Positions 42-34,258 of a stretch of 64,000 nucleotides of DNA are shown in pieces. The stretch is taken from positions 1 to 64,000 of the forward strand of contig NZ_JAOYTH010000016.1 of NCBI RefSeq assembly GCF_025847205.1, in the 5' to 3' direction. The stretch is from Pararhizobium sp. YC-54. Lineage in GTDB: Bacteria > Pseudomonadota > Alphaproteobacteria > Rhizobiales > Rhizobiaceae. The notes beneath the pieces were generated by a model. The model saw nothing but the letters and a program-made list of their open reading frames with translations. It did no database searches and was not told where the DNA came from. The translations under genes were made by a program, and so were the position numbers. Positions within the stretch are counted from its first letter, which is position 1. Each line of letters starts with the position of its first letter.

Positions 42-121
<80 letters not shown>

Positions 122-13750: not shown

Positions 13751-13754
<4 letters not shown>
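13116..13754 (-). CDS. PD-(D/E)XK-type restriction nuclease-like protein
   Basis: The 212-residue protein starts with a helical region rich in charged residues. It then shows the core GHCDIVVKGKNHFLWLAEAK (about 90-110), where D and the spaced EAK fit the PD-(D/E)XK nuclease site on adjacent strands, as in restriction enzymes. It is the last gene of a four-gene operon. Its ATG overlaps the stop of the GIY-YIG helicase gene by 4 bp (13751-13754), so translation is coupled. It probably provides DNA cleavage for the methyltransferase/helicase proteins upstream. The target is unknown. Confidence 0.7.
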
Positions 13755-16700
<2,946 letters not shown>

Positions 16701-16708
<8 letters not shown>

Positions 16709-18356
16709 CTTCGCTGGCGTCCACCGTGACGTCGCCCAACAGATCGCTCTCCAACCCCATAGGGCGGACAATCTTCTCGATGAACGCGATATCATCTTCG
16801 GACAGCCCGTAGTGGGCGTAGAGGGCCGCATCGGTCCATGTCCGCGTCCAGTCTTGGACAGGAACGAAAGTATAGACCTTTCGCGTCGTGTCCTGCGATG
16901 GCTTGTGTAACAAAATAAGGAGGCGCGTCAAACGACAAGACATGTATGTCAGAGCGCTTTCGGCCTCCTCTTTCGTGGCGAAAGGGCCAATGCACAAGTA
17001 TGTTTCAGAAGAGATCGTACCCGGTCCCGCGACGAACGGGGTGCTAATAATGCGATGAGGATAGGTGTCCCTATTCCCCGTTCCTGGTGCGGCGCGGCCC
17101 ACAAAAATCTTCCAAGCGTCGATCAGGCCGGTGCCTGTGGTGATGGAGCTACGTGGTGTGAATCCGGTGCCCCCGTTCTGGTAGACCATCAAGTCGGCTT
17201 CGGATTGCTTCTTCACCCGCCCCTTGAACTTGGTCTCAAGGCCGAACGGCTTTCGCGAACTAACGAGCCGTTCAAAGCGTTGGGTTTCAGGCAGCGTCAA
17301 AACCTCGGTCTGCCCTGTTTCACGGATCATGACCTTACGAAGGATCGATACGCCTTCGTTAAAGCGGATGAAGATGTCGGCGCCGTTCTCCAGAAGCGGC
17401 CTTGTAATTTCAGAAACCGGCCAGTCCTTGAAATGGGTTGCGACGCGGCAAGGTCCGCGATTTTCCTTGTCCCAAAGGAAATAGCAGACCCCACCTTTCA
17501 AACCGACACCGGGGAACACATCGGCGGCGCTTAGGTAATCGTGGATCGAACGCATCCTATCGTCCGACAACATCGATTCACGGAAATCATCAAGACCTTT
17601 GCCGCCTGCGAACCAGCGTGAAGGGATGACCATTGTTAAATATCTTGGCTCGAGCATTTTCGCCTGTTCCACAAAGAGCTGGTAGATTGGCGCTGCGCTG
17701 GTGCCGTGCCCGCCGTCGTCAAGTTGATAAGGCGGGTTTCCAATGATCACGTCGAAATGCATGTCGCCTCCAAACAGCTCGGCGATCCGAGTCTTGATAT
17801 CGTCGGTGTGGATGAACGCATAAGCATGGGTTTCAAGTCCCGCGCCGCGGTCTAAGGTTTCCTGGCTCGCGCCGCAGAATTTGCACTTTCCTGCCACCCA
17901 TGTGTGCTCTGTGCGTTCGAACCAGATGTTCCCGCTATCGGTCTCGAGGCTGCGGGCTATTGAGTGCACACCATTGGCATGCTTAGAGCAATACAGGCTC
18001 CGTCGAGCGAGTAGGCTAGTAAGCTGCGTAATGCCGATGCCAAAAACCTGATGGGTAAGGATATGATCCACGCGAGTCTGGAGATCAGGGATCTCACTCG
18101 CGAGCCCGGCGCTTAGGCGACTGGCAATCTCCCGCAAGAACACGCCCGACTTCGTGAACGGATCGAGGAACTTTACTGTCTTATCTACCCAGATGTTTGC
18201 GCCTCTATGGTTTGCCGCCCAGGCAGCGGCAAGAGTGTCGAGTATGCGGTTCGCGAACTCAGGCGAGGTAAACACCTCGTCGTTAGACAGGTTCGCGATG
18301 CAGGTCAGCACATCGGGATTTCTACCCCGCAGCGTAAATGCCGCTTGGCTGTTCAT
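16701..18356 (-). CDS. Eco57I-type adenine-specific DNA methyltransferase
   Basis: The 551-residue protein has the N6-adenine methyltransferase motif IV NPPY (about residue 207) in [16 protein letters not shown]. It is preceded by [12 protein letters not shown] (about 64), a degenerate AdoMet motif [10 protein letters not shown] (about 160) hints at a small zinc site. The second half resembles the target-recognition part of Eco57I-like enzymes. It overlaps the upstream gene by ATGA (18353-18356) and the downstream helicase by 8 bp. The operon therefore reads as modification genes first, motor and nuclease last. Activity as a true methylase with its partner, or as a DNA-sensing subunit, is open. 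Confidence 0.8.
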
Positions 18357-19006
18357 GCCGCCTCCTTTGGGACGCCACCATAACCGGTAGCCAGATCGCT
18401 TACCGTCATCGTTGGCCAGGTTTTGATTGGGGTGAAAATCTCGTGCTTGCCAAGGCGGGCAAACAACGATCCCTCAGCGCTGAAAGCCGATGATCCTGTC
18501 AGAACATCGAGACGGAAATCCCGGCGCTGGAACTTGCCTTTGCCGAGATAACCCCACTCGGCGAAGGTGATCGGCTTGCCGTCCTGTGCGCGCATTGTCA
18601 GCGCATCACCATGCACAAGGTTCTGCGACAGCACGAAGTACGCGGCCCGGTATAAGTTGTCCGTATCGTCGATGTTCAGATACCCTGCCAGAACATCGAG
18701 CATGTTCGCTCGGCATTCCGCGATATTGTCGGCCAGGAGCTCGATCCCATATGTGCACATCAGCCCGAGAAGTGCGTAGTGCCTCTTTTCAAATTCTGAT
18801 TTGCCGAATTTTGATTCGACGGCGGCGAGCTTCCGTTGAAAAACCTTGACCAAGAAATTGCCACTGCCGCAGGCGGGTTCCAGAAAGCGCGCATCGACAC
18901 GTTCGGCCTCGCCCTTGACGAGGTCTAGCATTGCGTCCACCAGCCAGGAGGGAGTGAAGACTTCCCCGTGGTCTGCAACGCGCTTCTTTGATTTGATTAG
19001 GCTCAT
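18353..19006 (-). CDS. N-terminal-type DNA methyltransferase subunit (AdoMet motif only)
   Basis: The 217-residue protein starts with the [14 protein letters not shown] segment common at the front of type I and IIG methyltransferases. It has a strong AdoMet motif [13 protein letters not shown] (about 42). No NPPY/DPPY catalytic motif follows; the next gene carries that instead. It is the first gene of the four-gene operon, and its TGA overlaps the next ATG. Either the pair forms one split methyltransferase, or two methyltransferase-like subunits act together. An ancient split of a single gene is also possible, but the neat 4-bp overlap and the second motif I in the next gene argue against a recent frameshift. 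Confidence 0.78.
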
Positions 19007-20690: not shown

Positions 20691-23600
20691 GTGCGGATCG
20701 TACAACGTGGTGATTGGGTGGCTTTTACTTATTTGGTACCAACAATCGAGTGTTTAGCGGACGAAACGGTGCTTATTCAAGCCTGGAGGAAGACATCCAA
20801 CTACATCCGCTACCACAACTGGTTCTCGGATACCCTTGAGCTCGACCGCACTGCGGTAAACCTTCGGGAGTTTATTTCTGACATCTCCCACCAGATCAAA
20901 TCCGGTGCCGCCCACCATTCGGAGCCAATCCGAATGGTGCCGGCACCCAAAAGCCATGCGTGGCGAGTTGAGAAGGATGGCCGCTGGAATCCTGTCGGCG
21001 CGAAAGGCGACGTGGTAAAAATTCGCCCGCTTGCTCATGTCAGCCTGCGGGATCAGGTAATAGCAACGGCGTTGATGATGTGCCTGGCAGACCGAGCGGA
21101 GACGCTCCAAGGGGACCCTACCACGCCTTTGGCTAGCCCCGGTATTGGTTCGATCGTGTCGTACGGCAATCGCTTACTATGTGATTACGATGACGGATTC
21201 GCCAAGCATCGATGGGGGTCCTCTAATCTCTATCGCGGGTTCTACGAAGACTATCAAAAATTTCTGGCTAGACCTGAAATGATGGCGGAGGCGATTTACG
21301 GACATGCTCCCAAAACATTGGTGGTACAGTCGGACCTGAAGCAATTCTATGATCGCGTTACCGAGGAGCTTCTGCACGGCGCGATACGCGGGCTTCAACA
21401 TCAGGCCGACGACCTTGACTTCTTCGATCTGGCGACCAACTTCCTGTCATGGAACTGGGCCCCCGTAGATCGGGATGAGGCAAAGATCTACGCGAAACAG
21501 TGCGGCATGCCGGACTTTAGCAGGATCTTCCTCCCTCAGGGGCTCGTCGCAGCCGGCTTCTTCGCTAACATCGCTCTTTCGAAATTTGATCAGCACATTC
21601 GGGAACAGATCGGGTTCGAGATTCTGCAGGACGTTAAACTTCACGACGCCGCTCGCTATGTGGACGATCTTCGTTTCGTGCTTACGGCACCAGCAACCGC
21701 GGATATAGAGCGAATCAGGGTCGATGTCTTCGGATGGATTGCTGAATGCCTAGACCGGTTCGCGCCAGGGCTCAGCCCGTCGGACGAGAAAACTCAGGTG
21801 TCACCATTCCGCGCCGACGAAAGGCCTATGGTCCAGCAGAGCAAGCGCATGGCGCGCATTCAATCTGCGATCTCGGGCGGTTTTGATCCAATCGCGGGAG
21901 GAGAGATCCTCGATTCAGTTCTAGGCCTAATCCGAGCGCAGGAACGCTTGGCCAAGGCCGAATCGATCAATCGTTACGATCCATTTAGACCAATTCCTGA
22001 CGTACGCGACTCAACTGTCGATCGCTTCGTCGCTGGACGCTTCCGCAGCACGTATCGCTCACTTCGTCCCCAGCTCTGGCAAACCGCCGAAGAGCAAAAG
22101 CAGCAAGGCGACGATGAACTGTATAGCCAATTCAAAGGGGTTCGGACTCGAGATGAGCTGGATGATGAGACCCGCGCATTTGCTTTAGAGCTGGTCTCCA
22201 GGTGGAGCAACGATCCGTCGAACGTTCGCTTGCTGCGGATAGCGCTGGACCTTTGGCCTGCACCTGATCTTCTTGAGCGCGTTCTCAGGTTGCTTCAACG
22301 TTTCACCAAAAAGGGGGGGCCGCGTAAGGCGCCGCGCCGGATAGCTTGGTACTGCCTTTCGGAGATCCTGAGAGCTGGCGCCGTCGAGACCGGGTTCGTC
22401 GAGGATGACGAACAGTTACCCTCGACAGTGGATGTTGACGGATACCGCCGCGTCCTTCGTGAGGAGGCATTGCGGATTGTCAAGACAACTGAAACGAGGC
22501 TCCCGTGGTACCTGATACAACAGGCTTACTTGTTGTTGGCTACGGCTCCACCCTCCCTCGATGAATTACCCAGGCTCAAGCGCAAGAATAGCTGGCCCTA
22601 CGTTCGGCTCCTGCAGTTCCTGAACGGCTCTGCCGGCAACCTGGTGGCGGAGGAATTCGCGACGTACGCCGTCTTGGCGCGACGCTCCTTCCTAAACCAA
22701 AACCGTGCGTCGAGACTCGTAGGTCGTCAATTGGGACCGGCGAGACTGAATCAGATTGCATCCGTTGATCCCAACTTCGCTGCCGAATTGGTCGAACATG
22801 TGGGCAAGGCGTCTTGGCTCACCCCGCGATCTAAGGCGGACTTAGGCATTTCCGAGCAGTCGACTGCGAAAAGTACACTCGCCCAGATCGTGCTTGCGCC
22901 TCAAACTCGACACACTTTACGCAATGAGCTAGCTCTGCTTTCTTTTGCCTCAAAGTTCCTGAACGCTCTTAACGGTGGCGCGGAGACCGGTACAATCACT
23001 CCCTCCGAAATCGCATTGACCATAGGGGTTGAGGCAAGCGACATCGTCGATCTGCAAATCAACCAGCGTGTTCTGGTTGGTGCCTCCCTGTACGACCCAC
23101 CTTCATGGGCGCCAACAAAGGATCATTGGCGCTTTCAGTTGGGCTTCCTGCTGCGCTTCATTCTCACTGCACAAGCAGACTTCAGCAGACCTTCACGGAG
23201 GCCTCACTGGAAGGAAGATCGACAAATCTATAGGCCGCCCAGGGGGCATTGGCACGAACGACTGTATGGCTTCTACAATGGTCATGCGGGCTTCGGCGAC
23301 GATTGGCTGCCAATCTCCGATTGGTTGGAGAAGTTACTCTTTGGCCTCCTATGGTGGCCCGGTTGCGCTGGCCGAGTTCTCGACTCTCCGGTGGCAGAGA
23401 GTCTCCAAGAGACGCTCGAAGTCGTCGATCGGCGGCTCGATGTTATGCGTGACCTACAGGGTACAAGCGTTAATCTTCTCCCTCTAAGGGCGCCGGGATC
23501 CTTTCAGCGCCATGGGAAGCCACTGCGTACATGTGTTGTACAGATGGCATTTCCTTCACTAACGGATTTTGACGCGGCAGATCTAAGTATGTCCTCGCCT

Positions 23601-24383
23601 ACCCGTCGGATCCGTCACCGTCGACATTTGTCAGCCGCTCTGGCCGCGGTTCGGAGTTCCCTTGCCCTCCGCGAGACCCACAAAAAAATCGAAGGCCGGC
23701 TTGATTGGCTCATACTGCCCGAACTGTCGGTACACCCTAACGACGTGCAAACGCATCTAGTGCCTTTCGCGCGAGCGCATAAAACGATCATTCTCGCGGG
23801 CCTGACATACGAAGAGCTCTTTCCCGGTCAGCCGTTGGTAAACTCCGCGATATGGGTTTTGCCGAGTCAAGATCCGACACGTGGTGTGCAAATTCTGGTT
23901 AGGCGGCAAGGCAAGCAACACCTCGCGCCGGACGAAAAGGCTTACGAGACCAGCGGACTTCTTCAACCGTTTAGACCCTGTCAATGGCTAATTGGATACG
24001 ACTGGTCGGCCGACGATGATGCGGACCCGCTGTGGTTGAGTGGCGCGATCTGCTTCGATGCCACCGATCTTCGATTGGCAGCCGACCTGAAGAACAGGTC
24101 TGATGTCTTCGCGATACCGGCCATGAACAAGGACGTTAACACGTTCGACAATATGGCGATCGCACTCCACTATCACATGCATCAAATGATAGTCGTAGCG
24201 AACAACGGGCACTTTGGCGGAAGCAATGCGTATGCGCCGTTCAAACAGTCCTGGGAACGTCGCGTTTTCCACACGCACGGCCAGCCACAGGCTTCGATCG
24301 CGTTTTTCGAGTTGGACGACATCGCCGCGTTTAAGGACCGCCGGGCAAGTGGTGGTCCCTTTAAGCCGCCCCCGGCGGGGTAG
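20691..24383 (+). CDS. Defence-associated reverse transcriptase fused to nitrilase domain (DRT class 1, UG1/UG5-like)
   Basis: The 1230-residue protein has an N-terminal reverse transcriptase. It shows motif A SDLKQFYD (about 214), FLPQGLVAAGFFANI as motif B, and the catalytic RYVDD (about 321). A long helical middle follows. A C-terminal carbon-nitrogen hydrolase (nitrilase) domain retains all three catalytic residues: Glu in LPELS (about 1010), Lys in the DEKAYE/GKQHL region (about 1075-1082) and Cys in GAICFDATD (about 1118). RT-nitrilase fusions belong to the unknown-group RTs known as DRT class 1, which protect against phages. No group II intron or retron parts are present. The start is uncertain: GTG at 20691 or GTG at 20718; neither has a strong ribosome site. 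Confidence 0.88.
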   Translation: MRIVQRGDWVAFTYLVPTIECLADETVLIQAWRKTSNYIRYHNWFSDTLELDRTAVNLREFISDISHQIKSGAAHHSEPIRMVPAPKSHAWRVEKDGRWNPVGAKGDVVKIRPLAHVSLRDQVIATALMMCLADRAETLQGDPTTPLASPGIGSIVSYGNRLLCDYDDGFAKHRWGSSNLYRGFYEDYQKFLARPEMMAEAIYGHAPKTLVVQSDLKQFYDRVTEELLHGAIRGLQHQADDLDFFDLATNFLSWNWAPVDRDEAKIYAKQCGMPDFSRIFLPQGLVAAGFFANIALSKFDQHIREQIGFEILQDVKLHDAARYVDDLRFVLTAPATADIERIRVDVFGWIAECLDRFAPGLSPSDEKTQVSPFRADERPMVQQSKRMARIQSAISGGFDPIAGGEILDSVLGLIRAQERLAKAESINRYDPFRPIPDVRDSTVDRFVAGRFRSTYRSLRPQLWQTAEEQKQQGDDELYSQFKGVRTRDELDDETRAFALELVSRWSNDPSNVRLLRIALDLWPAPDLLERVLRLLQRFTKKGGPRKAPRRIAWYCLSEILRAGAVETGFVEDDEQLPSTVDVDGYRRVLREEALRIVKTTETRLPWYLIQQAYLLLATAPPSLDELPRLKRKNSWPYVRLLQFLNGSAGNLVAEEFATYAVLARRSFLNQNRASRLVGRQLGPARLNQIASVDPNFAAELVEHVGKASWLTPRSKADLGISEQSTAKSTLAQIVLAPQTRHTLRNELALLSFASKFLNALNGGAETGTITPSEIALTIGVEASDIVDLQINQRVLVGASLYDPPSWAPTKDHWRFQLGFLLRFILTAQADFSRPSRRPHWKEDRQIYRPPRGHWHERLYGFYNGHAGFGDDWLPISDWLEKLLFGLLWWPGCAGRVLDSPVAESLQETLEVVDRRLDVMRDLQGTSVNLLPLRAPGSFQRHGKPLRTCVVQMAFPSLTDFDAADLSMSSPTRRIRHRRHLSAALAAVRSSLALRETHKKIEGRLDWLILPELSVHPNDVQTHLVPFARAHKTIILAGLTYEELFPGQPLVNSAIWVLPSQDPTRGVQILVRRQGKQHLAPDEKAYETSGLLQPFRPCQWLIGYDWSADDDADPLWLSGAICFDATDLRLAADLKNRSDVFAIPAMNKDVNTFDNMAIALHYHMHQMIVVANNGHFGGSNAYAPFKQSWERRVFHTHGQPQASIAFFELDDIAAFKDRRASGGPFKPPPAG

Positions 24384-24403
24384 GTCAGGCGCGGGGGCGG
24401 GAA

Positions 24404-25651
24404 ATGGATAGCATCACAGACATCGTCGTAGTGGGGGCGGGCGCCGCAGGCATTTCTGCTATGCGTGTGTTGGCCAGAGCCAATTGCACTTCGTTGCTGC
24501 TTGAGGCGTCGCCGCGAATTGGAGGCCGTGCCTGGACCGTCATGCCGAAAAGGGAACAGCACGTTGATTTGGGATGTGGGTGGTTACATTCGGCGGAGCA
24601 GAATCCGTGGGTACAGGTTGCCGAAGAGGCGGGCGTTTCAGTTGATCGCCGACAGGCTGCTTGGGGGAAGCAATACCAGAACTTGGATTTTAATCCGGAG
24701 GAGCAAAAAGCGGCACGGAAATTCCTGAGAGATTGGAATTCGGAGATGTGGGAGCGCCCCCCTGAGACCGACAGCGCTTGGGACGCCGCATCGCGGGTGG
24801 AGGGTGTGGAGCGCTGGCGGCCATATCTCGAACGGGTCGTCGGTGCCGTCAGCGGAAAACGGTTGGATGAAGTGTCCGTCACCGACTTTATGAACTATCA
24901 CCAAGCCAGTACGGAAGCCGATTGGCGTCTTCCAGTGGGCTTCGGGCATTTAGTGGCTGCGAGCCTACCGCGAGAGGCGAACACGTTAGTGGCCACCCCA
25001 GTAACCGGCATTGTGCTTGAGCCGTTTGGTGTAAGGCTGGAAACAAGGAGCGGCACTTTACGGGCGCGTGCTGCAATCCTTACAGTTTCCACAAACGTGC
25101 TGGCCTCGGGTTCCATTGCTTTGCCAACAGCGCTGACGGATTGGCAAGCGGCAGCGTCGGATCTGTCGCTAGGAAGCAATGAGAAGGTTTTCTTAGAGAT
25201 TGTATCTCCCTCAGACTTCGAGCCTGAAACTCAGGTCGTCGGAAATCCGCGGTCTTCCATCACGGGAGCTTACTACATACGACCGCTCGGGAGGAATGTG
25301 GTTGAGAGCTTTTACGGTGGGGAGGCGGCATCTGAGATTTGGTCCTTGGGTCCTGCCCACGCTTATGACTTCGCGACCAATGAATTAGTTCGACTGTTCG
25401 GTTCCAAGGCGCGTTCAAGTCTCCGACCGCTCACCATCTCCGGATGGAAACAGGACCCATGGGTATTGGGAAGCTACAGTTGCGCTTCGCCTCGCAAATC
25501 GATCGCCAGAACTCAGCTCGCACGAGCTTACGACGGCAGGATTTTTTTCGCAGGCGAAGCGACGCATCGCACCGCTTTTTCAACAGTGCACGGCGCATTC
25601 CTCAGCGGGGAACGCGCGGCGCAAGAAGCGCTACATGCCTTGTCGGTTTAG
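24404..25651 (+). CDS. FAD-dependent amine oxidase family protein
   Basis: The 415-residue flavoprotein opens with the dinucleotide-binding motif VVVGAGAAGISA (about 8-19), then EASPRIGGRAWT (about 34-45), the second FAD contact of the monoamine oxidase/phytoene desaturase superfamily. It ends with FFAGEATHRTAFSTVHGAFLSG, the C-terminal FAD motif. It probably oxidises an amine or similar substrate with oxygen. It has no signal peptide. It starts only 20 bp after the reverse transcriptase stop in the same direction, so they are very likely one transcript. A flavin oxidase is an unusual companion for an RT defence gene. Confidence 0.85.
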   Translation: MDSITDIVVVGAGAAGISAMRVLARANCTSLLLEASPRIGGRAWTVMPKREQHVDLGCGWLHSAEQNPWVQVAEEAGVSVDRRQAAWGKQYQNLDFNPEEQKAARKFLRDWNSEMWERPPETDSAWDAASRVEGVERWRPYLERVVGAVSGKRLDEVSVTDFMNYHQASTEADWRLPVGFGHLVAASLPREANTLVATPVTGIVLEPFGVRLETRSGTLRARAAILTVSTNVLASGSIALPTALTDWQAAASDLSLGSNEKVFLEIVSPSDFEPETQVVGNPRSSITGAYYIRPLGRNVVESFYGGEAASEIWSLGPAHAYDFATNELVRLFGSKARSSLRPLTISGWKQDPWVLGSYSCASPRKSIARTQLARAYDGRIFFAGEATHRTAFSTVHGAFLSGERAAQEALHALSV

Positions 25652-25809
25652 GAGGACAGCTCCACTCTCGTCGTTCACGCGCTTGGGCGAAGGTGGCCTG
25701 TAACCTCGATGGCGCAATCTAACAATATGCCGTGCACCACTAACCTCTCAGCTCCAGCCGGAGGTCTCATTCTCGTGGCTAACAAAGATCGAAAGAAATG
25801 GGGTGCGCA

Positions 25810-26700
25810 ATGAGTGACCTCGACCTCGCCTCAATGGCTTCAACCTTAGAAGCCAGTGGACAGTACCGTGTACTGCGCCGACTTATCCCGCGACCTCCGC
25901 GCCCTCATCCTGATGGCGCAAAGCTTCGTACCGGCCTTTTCGTCGACGTCGAGACCACCGGTCTGGATGTACGCCAGGACGAGATCATCGAACTCGCCAT
26001 GGTACCGTTCCGGTACGGTCTCGATGGCACAATCTACGAGGTACTGGAGCCTTTTCACGGATACCGGCAACCGTCGCGCCCGATCTTGCCCCTTATCACA
26101 TCGCTCACCGGTATCGATGACGCCACCGTTGAGGGTACGGACATCGCTCCCGCGAATGTCGCGAGTTTTGCTGCGCCCGCTGCGTTAGTCATCGCACATA
26201 ACGCGTCATTCGATCGGCGCTTTTTGGAACGATATAGCGAAGTCTTCAAAACCAAGCCTTGGGCTTGCTCCATGAGCGAAATCGACTGGAGTTCCGAGGG
26301 CTTTGAGGGAACCAAACTTGCGTATCTCGCCATGGGAGCAGGATTTTATTATGAACGTCACCGTGCGACCAGTGATTGTCTGGCGGCAATCGAGCTCCTC
26401 GCGCTACCACTTCCGAAGAGCGGCAAGACCGGACTTTATCGACTACTCCAAAATGCTCGAACTCCCAAATGGCGCATTTGGGCGGAAGGCGCTCCTTTCT
26501 CGATGAAAGATGCACTCAAGGCTCGGGGATACAAATGGAACGGAGACGACAGCGTACCTCCACGCTGCTGGTCCATCGAAGTGACGGACGCAGACAAGGA
26601 TGCGGAGCTAAGATTTCTCCGCGAGAGCATATATGGAGCGGACGTCGAGCCGTTGATGCGAATGATAGATCCTTACGATCGCTTCTCTGATCGTTGCTGA
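25810..26700 (+). CDS. DEDDh 3'-5' exonuclease (DnaQ-like)
   Basis: The 296-residue protein contains the three Exo motifs of the DnaQ/epsilon superfamily: GLFVDVETTGLD (about 42-53), AHNASFDRRFLER (about 127-139) and HRATSDCLAAIELL (about 184-197), giving D, E, D and the HxxxxD pair of the DEDDh type. The C-terminal third (RIWAEGAPFSMKDALKARGY...) is an accessory domain often seen in stand-alone bacterial exonucleases. The ATG at 25810 is preferred because of a GGGGT box 5 bp upstream; an in-frame ATG four codons earlier (25798) is possible. It follows the oxidase by 158 bp in the same direction and may be a further member of the cluster. Confidence 0.85.
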   Translation: MSDLDLASMASTLEASGQYRVLRRLIPRPPRPHPDGAKLRTGLFVDVETTGLDVRQDEIIELAMVPFRYGLDGTIYEVLEPFHGYRQPSRPILPLITSLTGIDDATVEGTDIAPANVASFAAPAALVIAHNASFDRRFLERYSEVFKTKPWACSMSEIDWSSEGFEGTKLAYLAMGAGFYYERHRATSDCLAAIELLALPLPKSGKTGLYRLLQNARTPKWRIWAEGAPFSMKDALKARGYKWNGDDSVPPRCWSIEVTDADKDAELRFLRESIYGADVEPLMRMIDPYDRFSDRC

Positions 26701-27068
26701 GGATAACGTCACCTCGGTCCCGAAACCGCGACTTCTACTTGATCACTGCCCTGTGTCCACTTCAGGAAACGGCGGAACGGATTTGAATGACCGAAATGAC
26801 AGCGCGTTTCGGACAGGCTGCTCTAGCCAAGATGGGTCAGCAAATCTGGGGTCGAAGCGGACTGACGGCTTCAATTTGCTAGGGTACCAATGCACACCAG
26901 CAAATCCGCGTTGGCCTTAGGTTCCTCACGGATCGTATGGGAGCGACTTTCTGCGTAAGACAACATCTTCCTGGCTAGAACTGTTTTGAAGTGATGGTAG
27001 CATTGCGTTACGCCTTACGAGCAGGAGGCGGAACGCCAACGGATCAAGTTGCAGGTAGGCCGGACCCT
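26701..27068. other. Intergenic region before the GHKL nuclease gene
   Basis: I see no gene or strong structural element here. The last 75 bases could instead be the N-terminus of the next gene if it starts at GTG 26991 or ATG 26994. Confidence 0.4.
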
Positions 27069-29141
27069 ATGAACCAAATCATTGCCCTGCAGCCAGGAAT
27101 GCTTCGTACCAACCTCAGGGGGCAGATCCGCCAAACACAGCTTCCGAAATGGAAGGCGCTACTCCCGCTGTTCGAGGCGGTGATGAACTCTTTTCAAGCA
27201 ATACAGGACGCGAAGTCCGACAAGCGGCACCGTGTCACGATCGTCGTGGAGCGTAACGAAGATCTGCTTGGCGAGGACAACGCCCCTATCGTCGGCTTCG
27301 AGATCAGGGATACCGGCATCGGCTTCACCGACGAGAACTTCGACTCCTTCAACACTGCGTATTCGGAACATAAGTACGAACGAGGCGGGAAGGGCCTCGG
27401 CCGGTTCATGTGGCTCAAGGCCTTCGAGACGGTTCACGTCAAGACGACTTTCCAAGCTCAGGACGGCGACGAGGAGCCAAGTCACTGGCTGCGGGATTTT
27501 GAGTTCGGCTTCAGCTACGACCCCGACGCGGCCAGCGCGACGCAGATCGATAGCGAAGCATCAGGAACCACGGTCCGACTCGGGGGCTTCCTTTCGCCCT
27601 ACCGCGAGGAATGCCCGGCCGACATCGAGATACTTGCGCAGCGACTGGCCGAGCATTTCATCCTTGTCCTGATGCAGCCGGAATGTCCCGAGGTCGAAAT
27701 TCATGATGGCGGCATCAAGCTGTCCCTCAACAAAGTGTTTGATGAGAACTTCCAGCGCGGCGGGCGCAGCGAGAAATTCGAGATAGCCGGACGGAGTTTC
27801 CGCATCGACGGGTTTCGTTTGCACTCTCCTCGCGCATCGAAACATCGCCTGATCTACGCGGCAAACTCCCGCGCGGTGATCACCGAAAGGCTCGACCAAT
27901 TCATCCCTAACTTCATTGGGCGGCTGCAAGACGAGAAGGGAGATACTTTCGTCTATCTCGCGGTGGTCCAAGGGGACTACCTCAATGACAGGGTAAACAA
28001 TTTCCGCACCGACTTCGACATGCGCGACGAACTGGAGGACGGACAAGGCGATCTTCTTCAAGTAGAAGACCTGCGACGGTCCGACATTCGAATGGAATGC
28101 CTAGCGTTCGTGCAACGGGACCTCGCCGAATTGATCGATGGCCTTAACGCCGCAAAAGCAAAGCGGGTCCGGGATTACGTCCGAACCGAAGCTCCACAGT
28201 ACAAACCCCTCCTTCGTTATCTGGATCAGTTCATCAGCTTAATCTCGCCGAACGCCTCCAAAATGGACATGGAGTTGGCGCTCCACCGGGAACTCCATCA
28301 ACGCGAGGTCAGCCTAAAAAGGGAAGGTTCGCGCATCCTGACCGAGGCAGCCAAGCAGGAGGACTACGAAGGGTACCGTCAGCGCCTATCGGAATTCATG
28401 GAGCGTTCGAACGAACTCGGTGTCTCGGCTCTTGCCCAGTACGTGTCCCACCGCAAGATCATCATCGAGCTGTTGGAGAAGGCGCTTTCCAACGACAAGC
28501 GGACCGGCAAGTACCCGCTCGAAGAGGCGGTCCACAATATCCTGTTTCCGATGAGGGCAACGGACCAAGATATCCTTTATTCGCAACAGAACCTTTGGAT
28601 CATCGACGAACGCCTCAACTTCCATTCGTTCATTGCTTCCGACCGGCCTCTAAACTCCCACACCGATTTCACCTCGGAATCCCGAAAGCGGCCGGATCTT
28701 TTCATCTTCGACCGGAAGATTGCGTTCTCCGAAAAGCCCGACGACGGGCTGCCTCTCAATAGCATCACCGTCATCGAGTTCAAACGACCGCAGCGAGACG
28801 ACTACACTGGCGACGACAATCCGCTCAGACAAGTGTTCGAACAGATACAGCTCATTCGCGGTGGCCAGTTTAAGGATGACAACGGCAGGCCGTTGTCGGT
28901 TGCGGGGGACAAGATCCCCGCTTTCGCCTACGTCGTCTGCGACATCACGCCGACCATGCACGCCGAACTGAAGATGTCGGACGCAATGCCTACGCCGGAT
29001 CAGCGCTCCTATTACGGATATCACCGGACATTCGGGATCTATTTCGAGGTTATAGACTACGGCCGGCTTCTTGCCGATGCCAAGCGTCGTAACCGCGTCT
29101 TCTTCGACCGTCTGAACCTCATGGACGCGCAGCGCCCCTAG
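27069..29141 (+). CDS. GHKL ATPase fused to PD-(D/E)XK nuclease domain
   Basis: The 690-residue protein starts with a histidine-kinase/Hsp90-type (GHKL) ATPase: N-box FEAVMNSFQAI (about 34-44), G1 box IRDTGIGF (about 79-86) and G2 box GGKGLGRFMW (about 104-113). There is no phosphoacceptor domain. A long helical region leads to a C-terminal nuclease-like core with RPDLFIFD (about 541) and ITVIEFKRPQRD (about 566-577), fitting D...ExK of PD-(D/E)XK enzymes. A nucleotide-driven clamp that controls a nuclease is the most likely action, as in MORC/MutL-like defence ATPases. I prefer ATG 27069 because the conserved LRTNLRGQIRQT segment follows soon after; GTG 26991 is the longest alternative. Confidence 0.78.
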   Translation: MNQIIALQPGMLRTNLRGQIRQTQLPKWKALLPLFEAVMNSFQAIQDAKSDKRHRVTIVVERNEDLLGEDNAPIVGFEIRDTGIGFTDENFDSFNTAYSEHKYERGGKGLGRFMWLKAFETVHVKTTFQAQDGDEEPSHWLRDFEFGFSYDPDAASATQIDSEASGTTVRLGGFLSPYREECPADIEILAQRLAEHFILVLMQPECPEVEIHDGGIKLSLNKVFDENFQRGGRSEKFEIAGRSFRIDGFRLHSPRASKHRLIYAANSRAVITERLDQFIPNFIGRLQDEKGDTFVYLAVVQGDYLNDRVNNFRTDFDMRDELEDGQGDLLQVEDLRRSDIRMECLAFVQRDLAELIDGLNAAKAKRVRDYVRTEAPQYKPLLRYLDQFISLISPNASKMDMELALHRELHQREVSLKREGSRILTEAAKQEDYEGYRQRLSEFMERSNELGVSALAQYVSHRKIIIELLEKALSNDKRTGKYPLEEAVHNILFPMRATDQDILYSQQNLWIIDERLNFHSFIASDRPLNSHTDFTSESRKRPDLFIFDRKIAFSEKPDDGLPLNSITVIEFKRPQRDDYTGDDNPLRQVFEQIQLIRGGQFKDDNGRPLSVAGDKIPAFAYVVCDITPTMHAELKMSDAMPTPDQRSYYGYHRTFGIYFEVIDYGRLLADAKRRNRVFFDRLNLMDAQRP

Positions 29142-30179: not shown

Positions 30180-30857
30180 CTACCGGACTTTGGAGAATCT
30201 ATCGAACAGCCAATCTACGAGCGGACGATTGCTCTGGTTTGGGAACCCGTAGGCCTCCCAGATCAGCGCGGCGAATTCAATAACACCCTTCCGCGCGACC
30301 CCGGCCTCGTGGCCCGTGATATTGAACCACACTTCACGCATGGCTCGCACGAAGGCATTGTCAAACGGACGATGATAGCCGCCAGCACCTTGGAAAATTA
30401 GCGTTTGAACGGTGGTCCACCTCGTCAGCGATTCTATCGCTTTAGAAAGATCGCCCATCGCCTCCATGAATTCGGGTCTGGCCCTGGAAGGTTCTTTGAG
30501 CGCCTGAAGTTCGAATTCAGCAAACATCCGGGCGTCCGCTTCCAATTCGGCATGCAAATGCCTCAATTTTTCAATCTCGACCATGCGTTTTGCATTGAAC
30601 TCACGGGCCGTTCGCCGATACCTCGAGCTTCGTCGCACCGCCTCAGCAGAAAAGGCCGCCCAAATCATTCCGTTAGCGATTTCTCGCTCGGCGTCCGCCT
30701 CGGTTACGATCAGCCCGTCAACGCTTCTCGCCATGGCAATGGCTTCGCTGACATCAAATTCTGGGTTCCTCAATGACAGCATGACCAGCATAACTGCGGG
30801 ATCGAGCCCCGCAGCCAAAACCGGTTGATAAGTGAGACGATTGGCTCGCATGGTCAC
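30180..30857 (-). CDS. Integrase-linked hypothetical protein
   Basis: No known domain is recognised in this 225-residue protein. It is mainly helical, with an arginine-rich stretch AVRRSSRYRRTAREFNAKRM (about 74-93) that could contact nucleic acid. Its GTG start overlaps the integrase TGA (GTGA at 30854-30857), so it is translationally coupled to the integrase; an ATG two codons later (30851) is the alternative start. It lies between the integrase and the excisionase-type gene, so a role in regulating or aiding recombination is likely but inferred. Confidence 0.65.
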   Translation of the reverse strand: MTMRANRLTYQPVLAAGLDPAVMLVMLSLRNPEFDVSEAIAMARSVDGLIVTEADAEREIANGMIWAAFSAEAVRRSSRYRRTAREFNAKRMVEIEKLRHLHAELEADARMFAEFELQALKEPSRARPEFMEAMGDLSKAIESLTRWTTVQTLIFQGAGGYHRPFDNAFVRAMREVWFNITGHEAGVARKGVIEFAALIWEAYGFPNQSNRPLVDWLFDRFSKVR

Positions 30858-32146
30858 GTCCGCTCGGGCGAGGCGTCCTCCGTAACTGGATTTCCAATTG
30901 CGCTACTTATGTGCGCCGCCGCTTTTGCAAGAGCCTCGCGAACCGGATTGTCGGCAAGGTGTGCATACCTTTGCGTGGTTTTAGCATTGGTATGGCCTAG
31001 GAGCTTTCCAACCACGGGGAGGGATGCTCCGCCGGAGATCGTGACACTAGCGAACGAATGCCTCAAATCGTGCAATCTGACGTCTACAAGGCCGCAATAT
31101 CTGCGAATGGCGTTCCACGGCCCGTCAAGGGTGTTGAGGGGCTTTTTCTTGTCCTTCTCCTGAGGGAAGACATACCCGCTCAACCTTGGCATCTTTCGGA
31201 TGATGTCCATCGCGGGCTCGGGCATATGCAGATTGCGTCGTCCGGCCTTGGTAAAGATGGTGAGAATGTTTCGTTCGAAGTCTATGTCTGTCCATCTCGC
31301 GTGCAGAATTTCTCGTAGGCGTCGGCCAGTCAGTATGAGTACCCTGAGCGCGTTGGTCACAGTCGTGCTTACAATGTACGGCGGGCGGGATCGAGCTATA
31401 TGCTTCGCCTTCTTGCCGGGCTTCGCCTGCGGGGTCGGGTAGGGAATGCCGGTCGTTTCAGCGACGGTTATCGCCGAGCCCAACGCCATCAGCTCGTCGT
31501 CCGACAGAAACCGCTCCCGTGCGTTTTCCTTGTTCTTGCCCACCCCGAAAGTAGGGTTTGTACCCCTTGGAACCAGCCCTGCGACGGCTGCCGAGCCGTA
31601 AAGGCTGCTGATCAACTCGCGACACCTGTTCGCGGTAGCGGGGTTGGTTTTGCTGAGCGTATTGTGAAAGTGCAGCACATCGCTAGAAGCGATCTGATCC
31701 AGTCTCAGTTTTCCAAAGGCAGGACCGATGTGGACCCGCATGTAGGAGCGGTATGTACCGATCGTCTTCTTGGTGAGCTTGGCGTTTTCAGGATGCGCGA
31801 TAGCCACCGCCTCGGCCGCGTCCAGCAGGGTTTTCGCGTACTCGGCTAAGGTTGGAGTTTTCTTGGACTTGCTCCGCTCGGCTGCCGGGTCGCGTCGGCT
31901 GGCAATAGCAAGGACGTGGGACTTCGCCTCGTCGCGGGCCTGATCGGGAGTCATCGCGCCACTATGTCTCCCGATCTTTATTCGCCGTACCTCGCTCTCT
32001 CGTCCTCCCGTTCTATATTCGAAATGATACGTCACCCCGGTTGTCGTGCGTCTTGCTTGAAAGCCCTTCAGATCCGAGTCTCTCAGGACTGTTTTGGGCG
32101 GCTCTTTCATCAGGGCATCGATTGTCGACTTCATGATCTTTGGCAT
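30854..32146 (-). CDS. Tyrosine-type site-specific integrase
   Basis: The 430-residue integrase has an N-terminal arm-binding region (SDLKGFQARRT...YHFEYRTGGRE), a core-binding domain (about 100-210) and the catalytic domain. The catalytic residues are R in TGRRLREIL (about 274), HDLRHSF (about 360), LGHTNAKTTQ and the nucleophile Y in QRYAHLAD (about 393). It should catalyse insertion and excision at the 47-bp tRNA-fMet core. The ATG at 32146 follows AGGAGG by 11 bp; the open frame extends to GTG at 32158, which lies inside the ribosome site. It reads away from attR, 184 bp from the core. Confidence 0.95.
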   Translation of the reverse strand: MPKIMKSTIDALMKEPPKTVLRDSDLKGFQARRTTTGVTYHFEYRTGGRESEVRRIKIGRHSGAMTPDQARDEAKSHVLAIASRRDPAAERSKSKKTPTLAEYAKTLLDAAEAVAIAHPENAKLTKKTIGTYRSYMRVHIGPAFGKLRLDQIASSDVLHFHNTLSKTNPATANRCRELISSLYGSAAVAGLVPRGTNPTFGVGKNKENARERFLSDDELMALGSAITVAETTGIPYPTPQAKPGKKAKHIARSRPPYIVSTTVTNALRVLILTGRRLREILHARWTDIDFERNILTIFTKAGRRNLHMPEPAMDIIRKMPRLSGYVFPQEKDKKKPLNTLDGPWNAIRRYCGLVDVRLHDLRHSFASVTISGGASLPVVGKLLGHTNAKTTQRYAHLADNPVREALAKAAAHISSAIGNPVTEDASPERT

Positions 32147-32187
32147 GGCTGTCAACACCTCCTGTTGATGTGAATGCGGCTCACGTC

Positions 32188-32204: not shown

Positions 32205-32329
32205 ACAAGGGAAATCGTGGCCAACCACGGAACAGCATGGTGCAAGCAAAACGCCCAGAAAACAAGGTTTTTTCTATCCCGTACGACGGCAGGAAAGCCG
32301 GCATGTCTGTTTGGAAACCTGACCTGTCT

Positions 32330-32376
32330 GGCTCATAACCTGAAGGCCGCAGGTTCAAATCCTGCCCCCGCAACCA
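32330..32376 (+). repeat. attR: second copy of the tRNA-fMet 3' half
   Basis: These 47 bases are identical to 72-118 and include the anticodon loop, T arm and CCA. No 5' half precedes them, so this is a remnant of the target site rather than a functional tRNA. It also encodes, on the minus strand, the last codons of the serine recombinase. Confidence 0.95.
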
Positions 32377-34183
32377 CTGAAACTTGCAAATTCTCCCACT
32401 CGGGATATTTGCACCGAAGCTCCTCCGCGTAAGCGTCGAGGAGCTTTTTGCGTTTCTGCTCCGTGTCGATCTCGCCGGAAGCGATCTTCGCCATCAGATC
32501 ATTCTGCGCGGCTGCGATGAATTGCTGCTCCAGCAGGTCCAGAACCTCCATCGAGGCCATGATGTTGGCGATCGAGCCGTGGACCTGCAAGGATGCCGGC
32601 TGGTGGCCCGGCGTCTTGCCGATCACCACCGTTTGGATAAGATCGCGCACGATCGGCATCAGGCGCGTCTTGGCATAGTCGTCGGCATTGTTGCGGGCAA
32701 TGAAGAGCAGCCTGCGGATGGCAATCTCGACGTTGGCCGGATTGAACTGCGTCTTCAGCTTCGCGATCTTCTCCTGAAAATCTTCTGCCGGCGCTTCTGC
32801 GTTGGCGAGTTCCTGCACCAGCTTCTCGCGAGTGACTTCCAGTTCATCGAGTTGGTCATCCAGGATGGCAAGCCGCGGGCGGCCTTCGGTATGGCGGTCG
32901 TGGATCTGCTGCATGAGGCTCTTCTGGGTTGCCTTGATCGTCGCAAGCTCGGCGTTCAACGCATCTTTGCGGGAAGGCGTACGCTTCAACATGCCGACTT
33001 CATGCGCGACCATCTTCTCCGAAATCCGGTCGAAGATATCGAGAGAGTAGAAGGCGACGGGGATGCAGTTCAGCACCCGTTCCTCCAGGTCCTGGCGCTT
33101 GATGGTTTTAGTGTTGCTGCAGCATTCGCCGTCAAGCTCGTCGATCGGCAGCCGCTTGCGATGGTTGGTGCAGCTATAACGGTCCTTGCCGGAGATTGCG
33201 TAAGGGCCACCGCATTCCGCGCATTCAAGCATGCGGCTCAGGAGATATTCCGGGCGCTGCGTTGCATTTAGCCTGTTGCTCTGCCCGAAATCAAACAGAT
33301 CACCGATCTCCTTTTGCCGGCTCTTCACGCGCTGCCAGAGTTCATCAGGGACAATGCGCATGGACGGTACATCCGTCAGCACCCATTCGTTTGCATCATT
33401 GACGCGGGCTGTTCTGCGCTCGGTATCTGGGTTCTTGCGATAGTTGCGCTTGTTCCAGACCATGCGGCCGATGTAGCTCTCGTTGTTGAGGATGCCGGTA
33501 CCACGGCTGACATGGCCGCGAATGGCCGTGTCGCGCCACTTTTTGCCACGTGGACCGGTAACGTCTTCATTGTTCAACAGATGCGCGATGTCGCGCGGCG
33601 ACATGCCGTCGGCATAGAGCTTGAAGATGCGTTGGACGATCTCGGCCTTATCTGGTTCGATCTCGCGAAGCCCCCTCATACGATCGCCGTTTGCATCGCG
33701 CTGCTGGGACAGCATGTAGCCATAGGCAAGGCAGGTCGATGCCTTGCCCTTGCGCACGGCCGTCTTCATGCCCTCGCGCGTGCGGTAGCGAATCTGTTCG
33801 ACCAGTTCATGGCTGAGCGCGGCACGCATGGCCAGCTCAAGGTCGGTGACAGGTGTGCCGGCATGGACGGTCCACAGTTCGACGTCACGATAGCGAAGCT
33901 CCTTGAGGATCTTCGCGCTGTGCTCGACGTCACGCGACAGCCGGTCAACGGTGACACAGAGAACGACATCGATGCGCTCACGCTTCACATGGGCGATAAG
34001 CTTCTGGATGCCGGGACGAAGCTGATAGCTGGTTCCGCTGATCGCGGCGTCGCAATAGGTCTCGACCAGCTTCCAGCCCTGCCTTTTGACAAAGGCCTCG
34101 CCGAGTTCGATCTGCGTTTCGATCGACACCTCGTGCTGGCGGTCGGTGGAGTAGCGGGCATAAAACAGGACAGTCTTCGTCAT
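32333..34183 (-). CDS. Large serine recombinase (second element)
   Basis: The 616-residue protein has a resolvase-type catalytic domain with the nucleophile in FYARYSTDRQ (Ser12) and DRLSRD (about 84-89). A recombinase domain follows (EIEPDKAEIVQRIFKLYADG...RGTGILNNESYIGRMVWN). It then has a zinc ribbon (CAECGGPYAISGKDRYSC...CC) and a coiled-coil/C-terminal region: the layout of phage and ICE integrases of the large serine family. The C-terminus (VAGAGFEPAAFRL) and stop are encoded by the antisense of the tRNA repeat, a known pattern in recombinases seated at tRNA genes. The start is MTKTVLFYAR; a seven-codon-longer ATG exists upstream. It probably mobilised its own element into this tRNA before the 32-kb island arrived. 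Confidence 0.92.
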   Translation of the reverse strand: MTKTVLFYARYSTDRQHEVSIETQIELGEAFVKRQGWKLVETYCDAAISGTSYQLRPGIQKLIAHVKRERIDVVLCVTVDRLSRDVEHSAKILKELRYRDVELWTVHAGTPVTDLELAMRAALSHELVEQIRYRTREGMKTAVRKGKASTCLAYGYMLSQQRDANGDRMRGLREIEPDKAEIVQRIFKLYADGMSPRDIAHLLNNEDVTGPRGKKWRDTAIRGHVSRGTGILNNESYIGRMVWNKRNYRKNPDTERRTARVNDANEWVLTDVPSMRIVPDELWQRVKSRQKEIGDLFDFGQSNRLNATQRPEYLLSRMLECAECGGPYAISGKDRYSCTNHRKRLPIDELDGECCSNTKTIKRQDLEERVLNCIPVAFYSLDIFDRISEKMVAHEVGMLKRTPSRKDALNAELATIKATQKSLMQQIHDRHTEGRPRLAILDDQLDELEVTREKLVQELANAEAPAEDFQEKIAKLKTQFNPANVEIAIRRLLFIARNNADDYAKTRLMPIVRDLIQTVVIGKTPGHQPASLQVHGSIANIMASMEVLDLLEQQFIAAAQNDLMAKIASGEIDTEQKRKKLLDAYAEELRCKYPEWENLQVSVVAGAGFEPAAFRL

Positions 34184-34258
34184 CGGGGACTCTTGAGTTC
34201 GCATGGAGTATGGGGACATGGTAGCCGGCGGGACGGGGTTTGGGAGCCCCGGCGCCTT

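What the first reader, a model, noticed from the sequence alone, without database searches (positions are those of the whole stretch)
20691..25651. RT-nitrilase defence gene with an FAD amine oxidase 20 bp downstream
The RT carries YVDD and a nitrilase with its Glu-Lys-Cys triad intact (DRT class 1 layout). An intact flavin amine oxidase follows 20 bp behind in the same direction. Nitrilase and amine oxidase both act on C-N bonds, so a small-molecule step (making or destroying a signal or toxic product) may be part of this version of the system. I know of no described RT defence system with this enzyme.
Basis: partly seen in the sequence, partly recalled or inferred. Interest (0 to 1): 0.7.

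Follow-up and report, generated by a model that had tools for sequence, protein, structure and literature searches.

The report
RT-nitrilase defence gene with amine oxidase
A known bacterial anti-phage gene (a reverse transcriptase fused to a nitrilase) sits next to a flavin amine oxidase gene, a pairing that recurs in some relatives and hints at what the nitrilase, whose target is unknown, may act on.

Summary
Window 20718-24383 is a full-length DRT1a (PADLOC 1281 bits) with YVDD and the Glu-Lys-Cys triad. A flavin amine oxidase starts 20 bp behind it. Both lie in a 32.3-kb element bounded by a 51-nt repeat of the tRNA-Met 3' end.

0 of 79 DRT1a loci from genome contigs hold the oxidase, including five at 71-73% RT identity. 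Protein lists point the other way for part of the clade. Three RT/oxidase pairs share exact contig lengths (6,664, 19,414, 13,360 bp; mean 0.19 and at most 2 in 400 shifted controls), the first named Agrobacterium tumefaciens on both proteins. One record joins such an RT to such an oxidase in frame. These oxidases form one clade apart from 48 relatives (100/100), mostly with a cysteine where relatives have Tyr or His.

I read it as a recurrent but optional two-gene variant of DRT1, not found in print in my searches. The published DRT1 works alone and its nitrilase substrate is unknown (PMC13275509), so the oxidase is a testable lead. A shared small-molecule pathway is inference.

The parts
   Evidence: PADLOC PDLC03745 1281 bits; starts of P0121-P0125; solved relative 9yfd E 2.6e-110
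21657..21668 (+). RT catalytic YVDD
   Evidence: read in sequence; invariant; aligns with the YVDD of 9yfd
23721..24053 (+). nitrilase triad: Glu1011 (23721), Lys1075 (23913), Cys1121 (24051)
   Evidence: invariant columns; Cys1121 aligns with C1116 of 9yfd, whose C1116A mutant lost immunity
24384..24403 (+). 20-bp gap between the two genes
   Evidence: sequence; no promoter- or terminator-like site in a weak scan
24404..25651 (+). DRT1-linked flavin amine oxidase (415 aa); Lys261 codon at 25184, Cys360 codon at 25481
   Evidence: PF01593 5.2e-44; clade and residues; fold model pLDDT 82 with amine-oxidase matches
25798..26700 (+). DEDDh 3'-5' exonuclease (PRK09182 type), 146 bp behind the oxidase; possible but unproven partner
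   Evidence: NF006615 404.6 bits, cut-off 207
42..118 (+). tRNA-Met; left repeat of the element at 68-118
   Evidence: ARAGORN; 51-nt direct repeat, 98%
32326..32376 (+). right copy of the tRNA-Met 3' end: right end of the element
   Evidence: sequence
30854..32158 (-). 434-aa ORF at the right end, read as a tyrosine integrase
   Evidence: ORF; named by eye, no profile run

Best explanation
This is a two-gene variant of the DRT1 anti-phage system, carried by a 32.3-kb element integrated at a tRNA-Met gene. The first gene works as the published DRT1 does: protein-primed, template-free DNA synthesis builds dormant tetramers and filaments, phage infection releases them, and the nitrilase domain then attacks a C-N bond of a cell metabolite (all inferred by homology). 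The second gene, a flavin amine oxidase of its own clade, is co-expressed and acts on the same small molecule or on the nitrilase product. Most likely it oxidises a released amine to an aldehyde and hydrogen peroxide and so strengthens the shut-down of the infected cell. Shown here: DRT1a identity, intact catalytic residues, 20-bp spacing, repeated linkage by database records, a separate oxidase clade. Inferred: co-transcription, shared pathway, order of the steps, toxicity of the product.
For: Drt1a profile 1281 bits over residues 14-1230; catalytic residues invariant in 11 of 11 aligned DRT1a. Three exact contig-length matches between 120 oxidase and 120 RT records, each pair with the same source labels; on contigs of 4.9 kb or more, 3 observed against a mean of 0.19 and 0 of 400 shifted controls with 3 or more; over all lengths 3 of 400 controls reach 3. 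Both proteins of the 6,664-bp pair are named Agrobacterium tumefaciens. P0140: an RT (66%) joined to residues 115-420 of an oxidase 99.3% identical to P0009, same gene order. All 16 clade oxidase rows on one branch, 100/100, against 48 relatives. Identities of 5 RT/oxidase pairs co-vary (Pearson 0.97, Spearman 0.73; 3 of 120 relabelings as high). Cys360 in 14 of 14 full-length clade rows against 7 of 143 relatives; Lys261 in all 157. PMC13275509 (sections 5 and 10; passages): RT and nitrilase activity both needed, nitrilase substrate unknown.
Against: 0 of 79 genome contigs DRT1a loci hold the oxidase, 73 of them with at least 1.3 kb downstream, among them 7 members of the same RT clade. Over the 97 DRT1a loci other than the window's own the count is 0 (88 with 1.3 kb), and 0 of 4 more. 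Two of the window's nearest RTs (P0123, P0124, 85%) lie on contigs of 17,840 and 10,932 bp with no listed oxidase. Of 10 other clade oxidases on contigs long enough for both genes, 3 share a length with a listed RT, 1 (P0009) is linked only through P0140, 6 show none. The identity correlation leans on one close pair, and the finer branching of the oxidase tree differs from the RT tree, with weak support. P0140's oxidase part has Tyr, not Cys, at position 360. The published DRT1 protects without an oxidase. Linkage rests on contig-length metadata and one joined protein, not on DNA that I read. No transcript, substrate or phage assay exists for this pair in what I saw.
Confidence: 0.42

Rival explanations
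1. The oxidase is a passenger: an amine oxidase that travels with some members of this DRT1 lineage on mobile elements and has a metabolic role of its own.
For: Present at 0 of 79 genome-contig loci; six clade oxidases on long contigs and 17 of 21 clade RT records on long contigs show no partner in the lists; the exonuclease behind the window's oxidase has relatives beside two ordinary oxidases of one genus (L118, L119).
Against: Three contig-length matches, one joined record, one separate oxidase clade; 20-bp spacing.
Confidence: 0.25
2. The oxidase is a safety partner: it removes the nitrilase's substrate or product in uninfected cells and so restrains leaky DRT1 toxicity.
For: PMC13275509 stresses the risk of a contextually toxic immunity protein. 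The oxidase is optional across the clade, as an added safeguard could be.
Against: The published DRT1 already restrains itself by filament formation. Nothing here separates a detoxifying from a toxifying enzyme.
Confidence: 0.2
3. The order of the two steps is reversed: the oxidase works like an amino-acid monooxygenase that makes an amide, and the DRT1 nitrilase domain hydrolyses that amide, as lysine monooxygenase DavB and the amidase DavA do.
For: The enzyme pair DavB/DavA exists (start of the abstract of PMC4980613 in the listing); that DavB is of the flavin amine oxidase family and DavA of the nitrilase superfamily is recalled.
Against: No sequence evidence of substrate; the fold model is closest to monoamine, nicotine and polyamine oxidases and LSD2. 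The tested DRT1 works without an oxidase.
Confidence: 0.1

Closest known systems
DRT1 (RT-nitrilase; PMC13275509, structure 9yfd)
   Same: Full-length RT-nitrilase, YVDD, Glu-Lys-Cys triad, C-terminal stretch with the PAG motif
   Different: An amine oxidase gene follows 20 bp behind; the tested DRT1 works as a single gene, and about 18% of drt1 genes have the membrane partner drt1b. The word 'oxidase' occurs 0 times in that paper's main text.
DRT1 with drt1b membrane partner
   Same: RT-nitrilase plus an accessory gene directly downstream; ORFs of about 140-170 aa follow the RT in L007-L009 (not tested as drt1b)
   Different: The accessory gene here is a flavin enzyme; only 20 bp lie between RT and oxidase, so no small ORF fits.
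Bacterial monoamine and polyamine oxidases (8p84, 9h5p; spermine oxidase 7oxl)
   Same: Same Pfam family and fold, TM about 0.76; lysine at position 261 kept
   Different: 24-25% identity to 8p84; Cys360 aligns with the second Tyr of GSYSY of spermine oxidase; separate clade from its nearest relatives.

Membership tests
DRT1 | RT domain with YxDD | tested here: met
   YVDD at residues 323-326, invariant in 11 rows
DRT1 | C-terminal nitrilase domain with Glu-Lys-Cys | tested here: met
   E1011, K1075, C1121 invariant in 11 rows; C1121 aligns with C1116 of 9yfd
DRT1 | whole-length match to the Drt1a profile | tested here: met
   PDLC03745, 1281 bits, residues 14-1230
DRT1 | serine primer equivalent to S402 | tested here: inconclusive
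   S402 of 9yfd aligns with Gly397; the nearly invariant Ser395 lies two residues earlier
DRT1 | protein-primed DNA synthesis and abortive anti-phage defence | not testable with these tools
   needs the bench
Flavin amine oxidase (PF01593) | family match and N-terminal GAGAAG FAD motif | tested here: met
   151.7 bits, cut-off 19.8; five of the six motif columns invariant in 14 rows, the sixth nearly so
Flavin amine oxidase (PF01593) | lysine near the flavin (role recalled) | tested here: met
   Lys261 in 14 of 14 clade rows and 143 of 143 relatives
Canonical polyamine oxidase / LSD1 type | aromatic residue at the last position of GSYSY (cage role recalled) | tested here: not met
   Cys in 14 of 14 full-length clade rows; relatives Tyr 99, His 32, Cys 7, Phe 1, other 4 of 143. 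The joined record P0140 has Tyr.

The most novel reading that the evidence does not exclude
DRT1 nitrilase and this oxidase form a two-step effector that turns a cell metabolite into a toxic aldehyde and peroxide on phage infection, the first RT defence system with a redox small-molecule step, and the oxidase reveals the chemical class of the unknown DRT1 nitrilase substrate (an amine or amide, perhaps a polyamine).
Probability: 0.22. Interest if true: 0.85.

Novelty: new variant of a known kind. Interest (0 to 1): 0.6.

Why it matters
[quoted passage not shown] A linked amine oxidase narrows the candidates and makes the question testable by metabolomics with two knock-outs. It would also add oxidative amine chemistry to the effectors of RT-based defence.

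Tried and rejected
A single-protein scan of genome contigs gave no confirmed locus; the alignment scan found 200 candidates and kept 79 loci, so the survey is capped. My first conclusion, a chance neighbour (note), was dropped when the two protein lists shared contig lengths. P0140 as a working fusion is rejected: it lacks the RT's C-terminal stretch and the oxidase's first 114 residues with the FAD motif, so it is a deletion or an assembly join. The control of 0.0175 matches for the top 14 oxidases by top 41 RTs was chosen after seeing the matches; I use the controls instead. Oxidase scans of viral contigs gave no locus or three distant or partial ones; the RT scan gave three at 28-30%. Blastn of both genes against plasmids found no pair; tblastn of each against plasmids found oxidases at 47.5% and RTs at 49.7% in the best rows. 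The 30 loci of ordinary oxidases (L099-L128) carry no RT within their 1.5-kb flanks. Residues that separate 5 linked from 7 unlinked RTs: only position 1145, Met against Leu. The scan for tightly spaced downstream genes took a wrong ORF for the RT in some loci and is not used for counts. No metagenome scan was allowed and the Mestre 2022 survey is not held.

Rows dropped: P0156, P0158, P0159 from the RT tree (partial); P0014 (301 aa) from alignment A2 and from the residue count. L024's row in the RT tree is probably not its RT (branch length 10) and L057 is a long branch; I draw nothing from either.

Full report
What is there. YVDD and the triad E1011, K1075, C1121 are intact and invariant in an alignment of 11 DRT1a proteins. 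The one solved sequence matched at 1e-3 is DRT1, 9yfd. The downstream gene (24404-25651) is a full-length flavin amine oxidase, modelled with mean pLDDT 82 (residues 355-359 under 50). Its top fold matches include a bacterial monoamine oxidase, NicA2, LSD2 and acetylpolyamine oxidase.

Setting. A 51-nt copy of the tRNA-Met 3' end (68-118) returns at 32326-32376 at 98% identity, beside a 434-aa ORF that looks like an integrase, so both genes lie in a 32.3-kb element. Profiles put restriction-modification-like genes (13751-19006) and a DEDDh exonuclease (25798-26700) in it.

Is the pairing recurrent? First answer: no. An alignment scan of genome contigs kept 79 DRT1a loci of 200 candidates. Tblastn of the oxidase hit none of the 79 at 1e-3; 73 have 1.3 kb or more downstream. 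Five of these RTs are 71-73% identical to the window's (L019, L020, L021, L059, L067). With the loci from plasmids, viral contigs and genome searches, 0 of 97 loci other than the window's own hold it (some are fragments, and L006 and L036 carry the same protein). Of 394 genomes of the family 5 have a DRT1a, the window's own included; the other four also lack the oxidase.

Second answer: yes, in part. With one list shifted by 1-200 bases either way, 3 of 400 controls reach three matches over all lengths (mean 0.405); on contigs of 4.9 kb or more, which could hold both genes, none does (mean 0.19, at most 2). P0140 is a 1486-aa record whose first 1180 residues are an RT of this clade and whose rest is 99.3% identical to residues 115-420 of oxidase P0009. 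It lacks parts that both enzymes need, so I read it as a deletion or an assembly join, but it shows the same gene order.

Against it. Of the 23 database RTs in the 31-row clade, 21 have a longest contig of 4.9 kb or more; 3 of these share a length with a listed oxidase, P0140 is joined to one, and 17 show none, among them P0123 and P0124, 85% identical to the window's RT. Of the 14 other clade oxidases (P0002-P0015), four lie on contigs too short for both genes (P0002, P0005, P0010, P0013); of the other ten, three are matched, P0009 only through P0140, and six are not (P0004, P0006, P0007, P0008, P0012, P0014). The lists show 120 rows and one contig length per cluster, and cut-off RTs score too low to be listed, so these are weak negatives.

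History. In the RT tree (quick method) the linked RTs fall in two places of one 31-row clade: window with P0122, and P0146 with P0139 and P0140. Seven loci of the clade that I could read are unlinked. In the oxidase tree the 16 clade rows are one side of a branch at 100/100 against 48 relatives, and the split between window/P0003 and P0011/P0015/P0009 agrees with the RT split. Below that the orders differ: the RT tree puts P0139 with P0140, the oxidase tree puts P0015 with P0009 (support 86/77). Identities of the five pairs co-vary (Pearson 0.97, Spearman 0.73; 3 of 120 relabelings as high), but the Pearson value leans on the one close pair. One acquisition with later losses fits; two acquisitions are not excluded.

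Chemistry. Lys261 is kept in all 157 rows compared; Cys360 is in 14 of 14 full-length clade rows but in 7 of 143 relatives, where Tyr (99) and His (32) prevail. P0140, not in that count, has Tyr. The position aligns with the last Tyr of GSYSY in spermine oxidase. Its role as an aromatic-cage residue is recalled. This suggests a changed substrate pocket.

Mechanism. From PMC13275509 (abstract, sections 5 and 10, and passages): DRT1 makes protein-primed, untemplated DNA, forms dormant filaments, needs both active sites, and its nitrilase substrate is unknown. I infer the same for this RT. A second enzyme of amine chemistry, 20 bp behind and linked in relatives, most simply shares the metabolite. 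Toxic amplification, restraint, and a reversed order of steps remain open.

Literature. No held paper has both 'amine oxidase' and 'anti-phage defense'; one paper, on Cronobacter, has 'defense-associated reverse transcriptase' and 'oxidase' (listing only); two plant papers have 'DRT1' and 'amine oxidase' (listing only). The Mestre survey of UG/Abi neighbours is not held, so it could list this gene. Novelty is stated against these searches only.

Noticed in passing
L020 4401-5798, L059 4412-5803, L067 4543-5931: An exonuclease I-like ORF lies directly upstream of the RT in three Rhodobacterales DRT1a loci, 87% alike; name by eye.
   Followed up: partly
window 25798-26700; L010, L019, L118, L119: The PRK09182-type exonuclease behind the oxidase has relatives beside two other DRT1a genes (62%, 46%) and beside two ordinary amine oxidases of one genus (47%, 46%).
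   Followed up: partly
G000:C16:65433-65612 (-), just outside the window: A 180-bp piece like DRT1a (72 bits), perhaps the fossil of a second copy.
   Followed up: no
window 32333-34219 (-): A 628-aa ORF that looks like a large serine recombinase abuts the right repeat, as if a second element sat in tandem.
   Followed up: no
window 26991-29141: A 716-aa protein with a weak HATPase match below the cut-off and no other family, inside the element.
   Followed up: no
L082, L083 directly downstream of the RT: Two DRT1a loci have an ORF of 656-665 aa that starts within 20 bp of the RT stop, perhaps another accessory gene.
   Followed up: no
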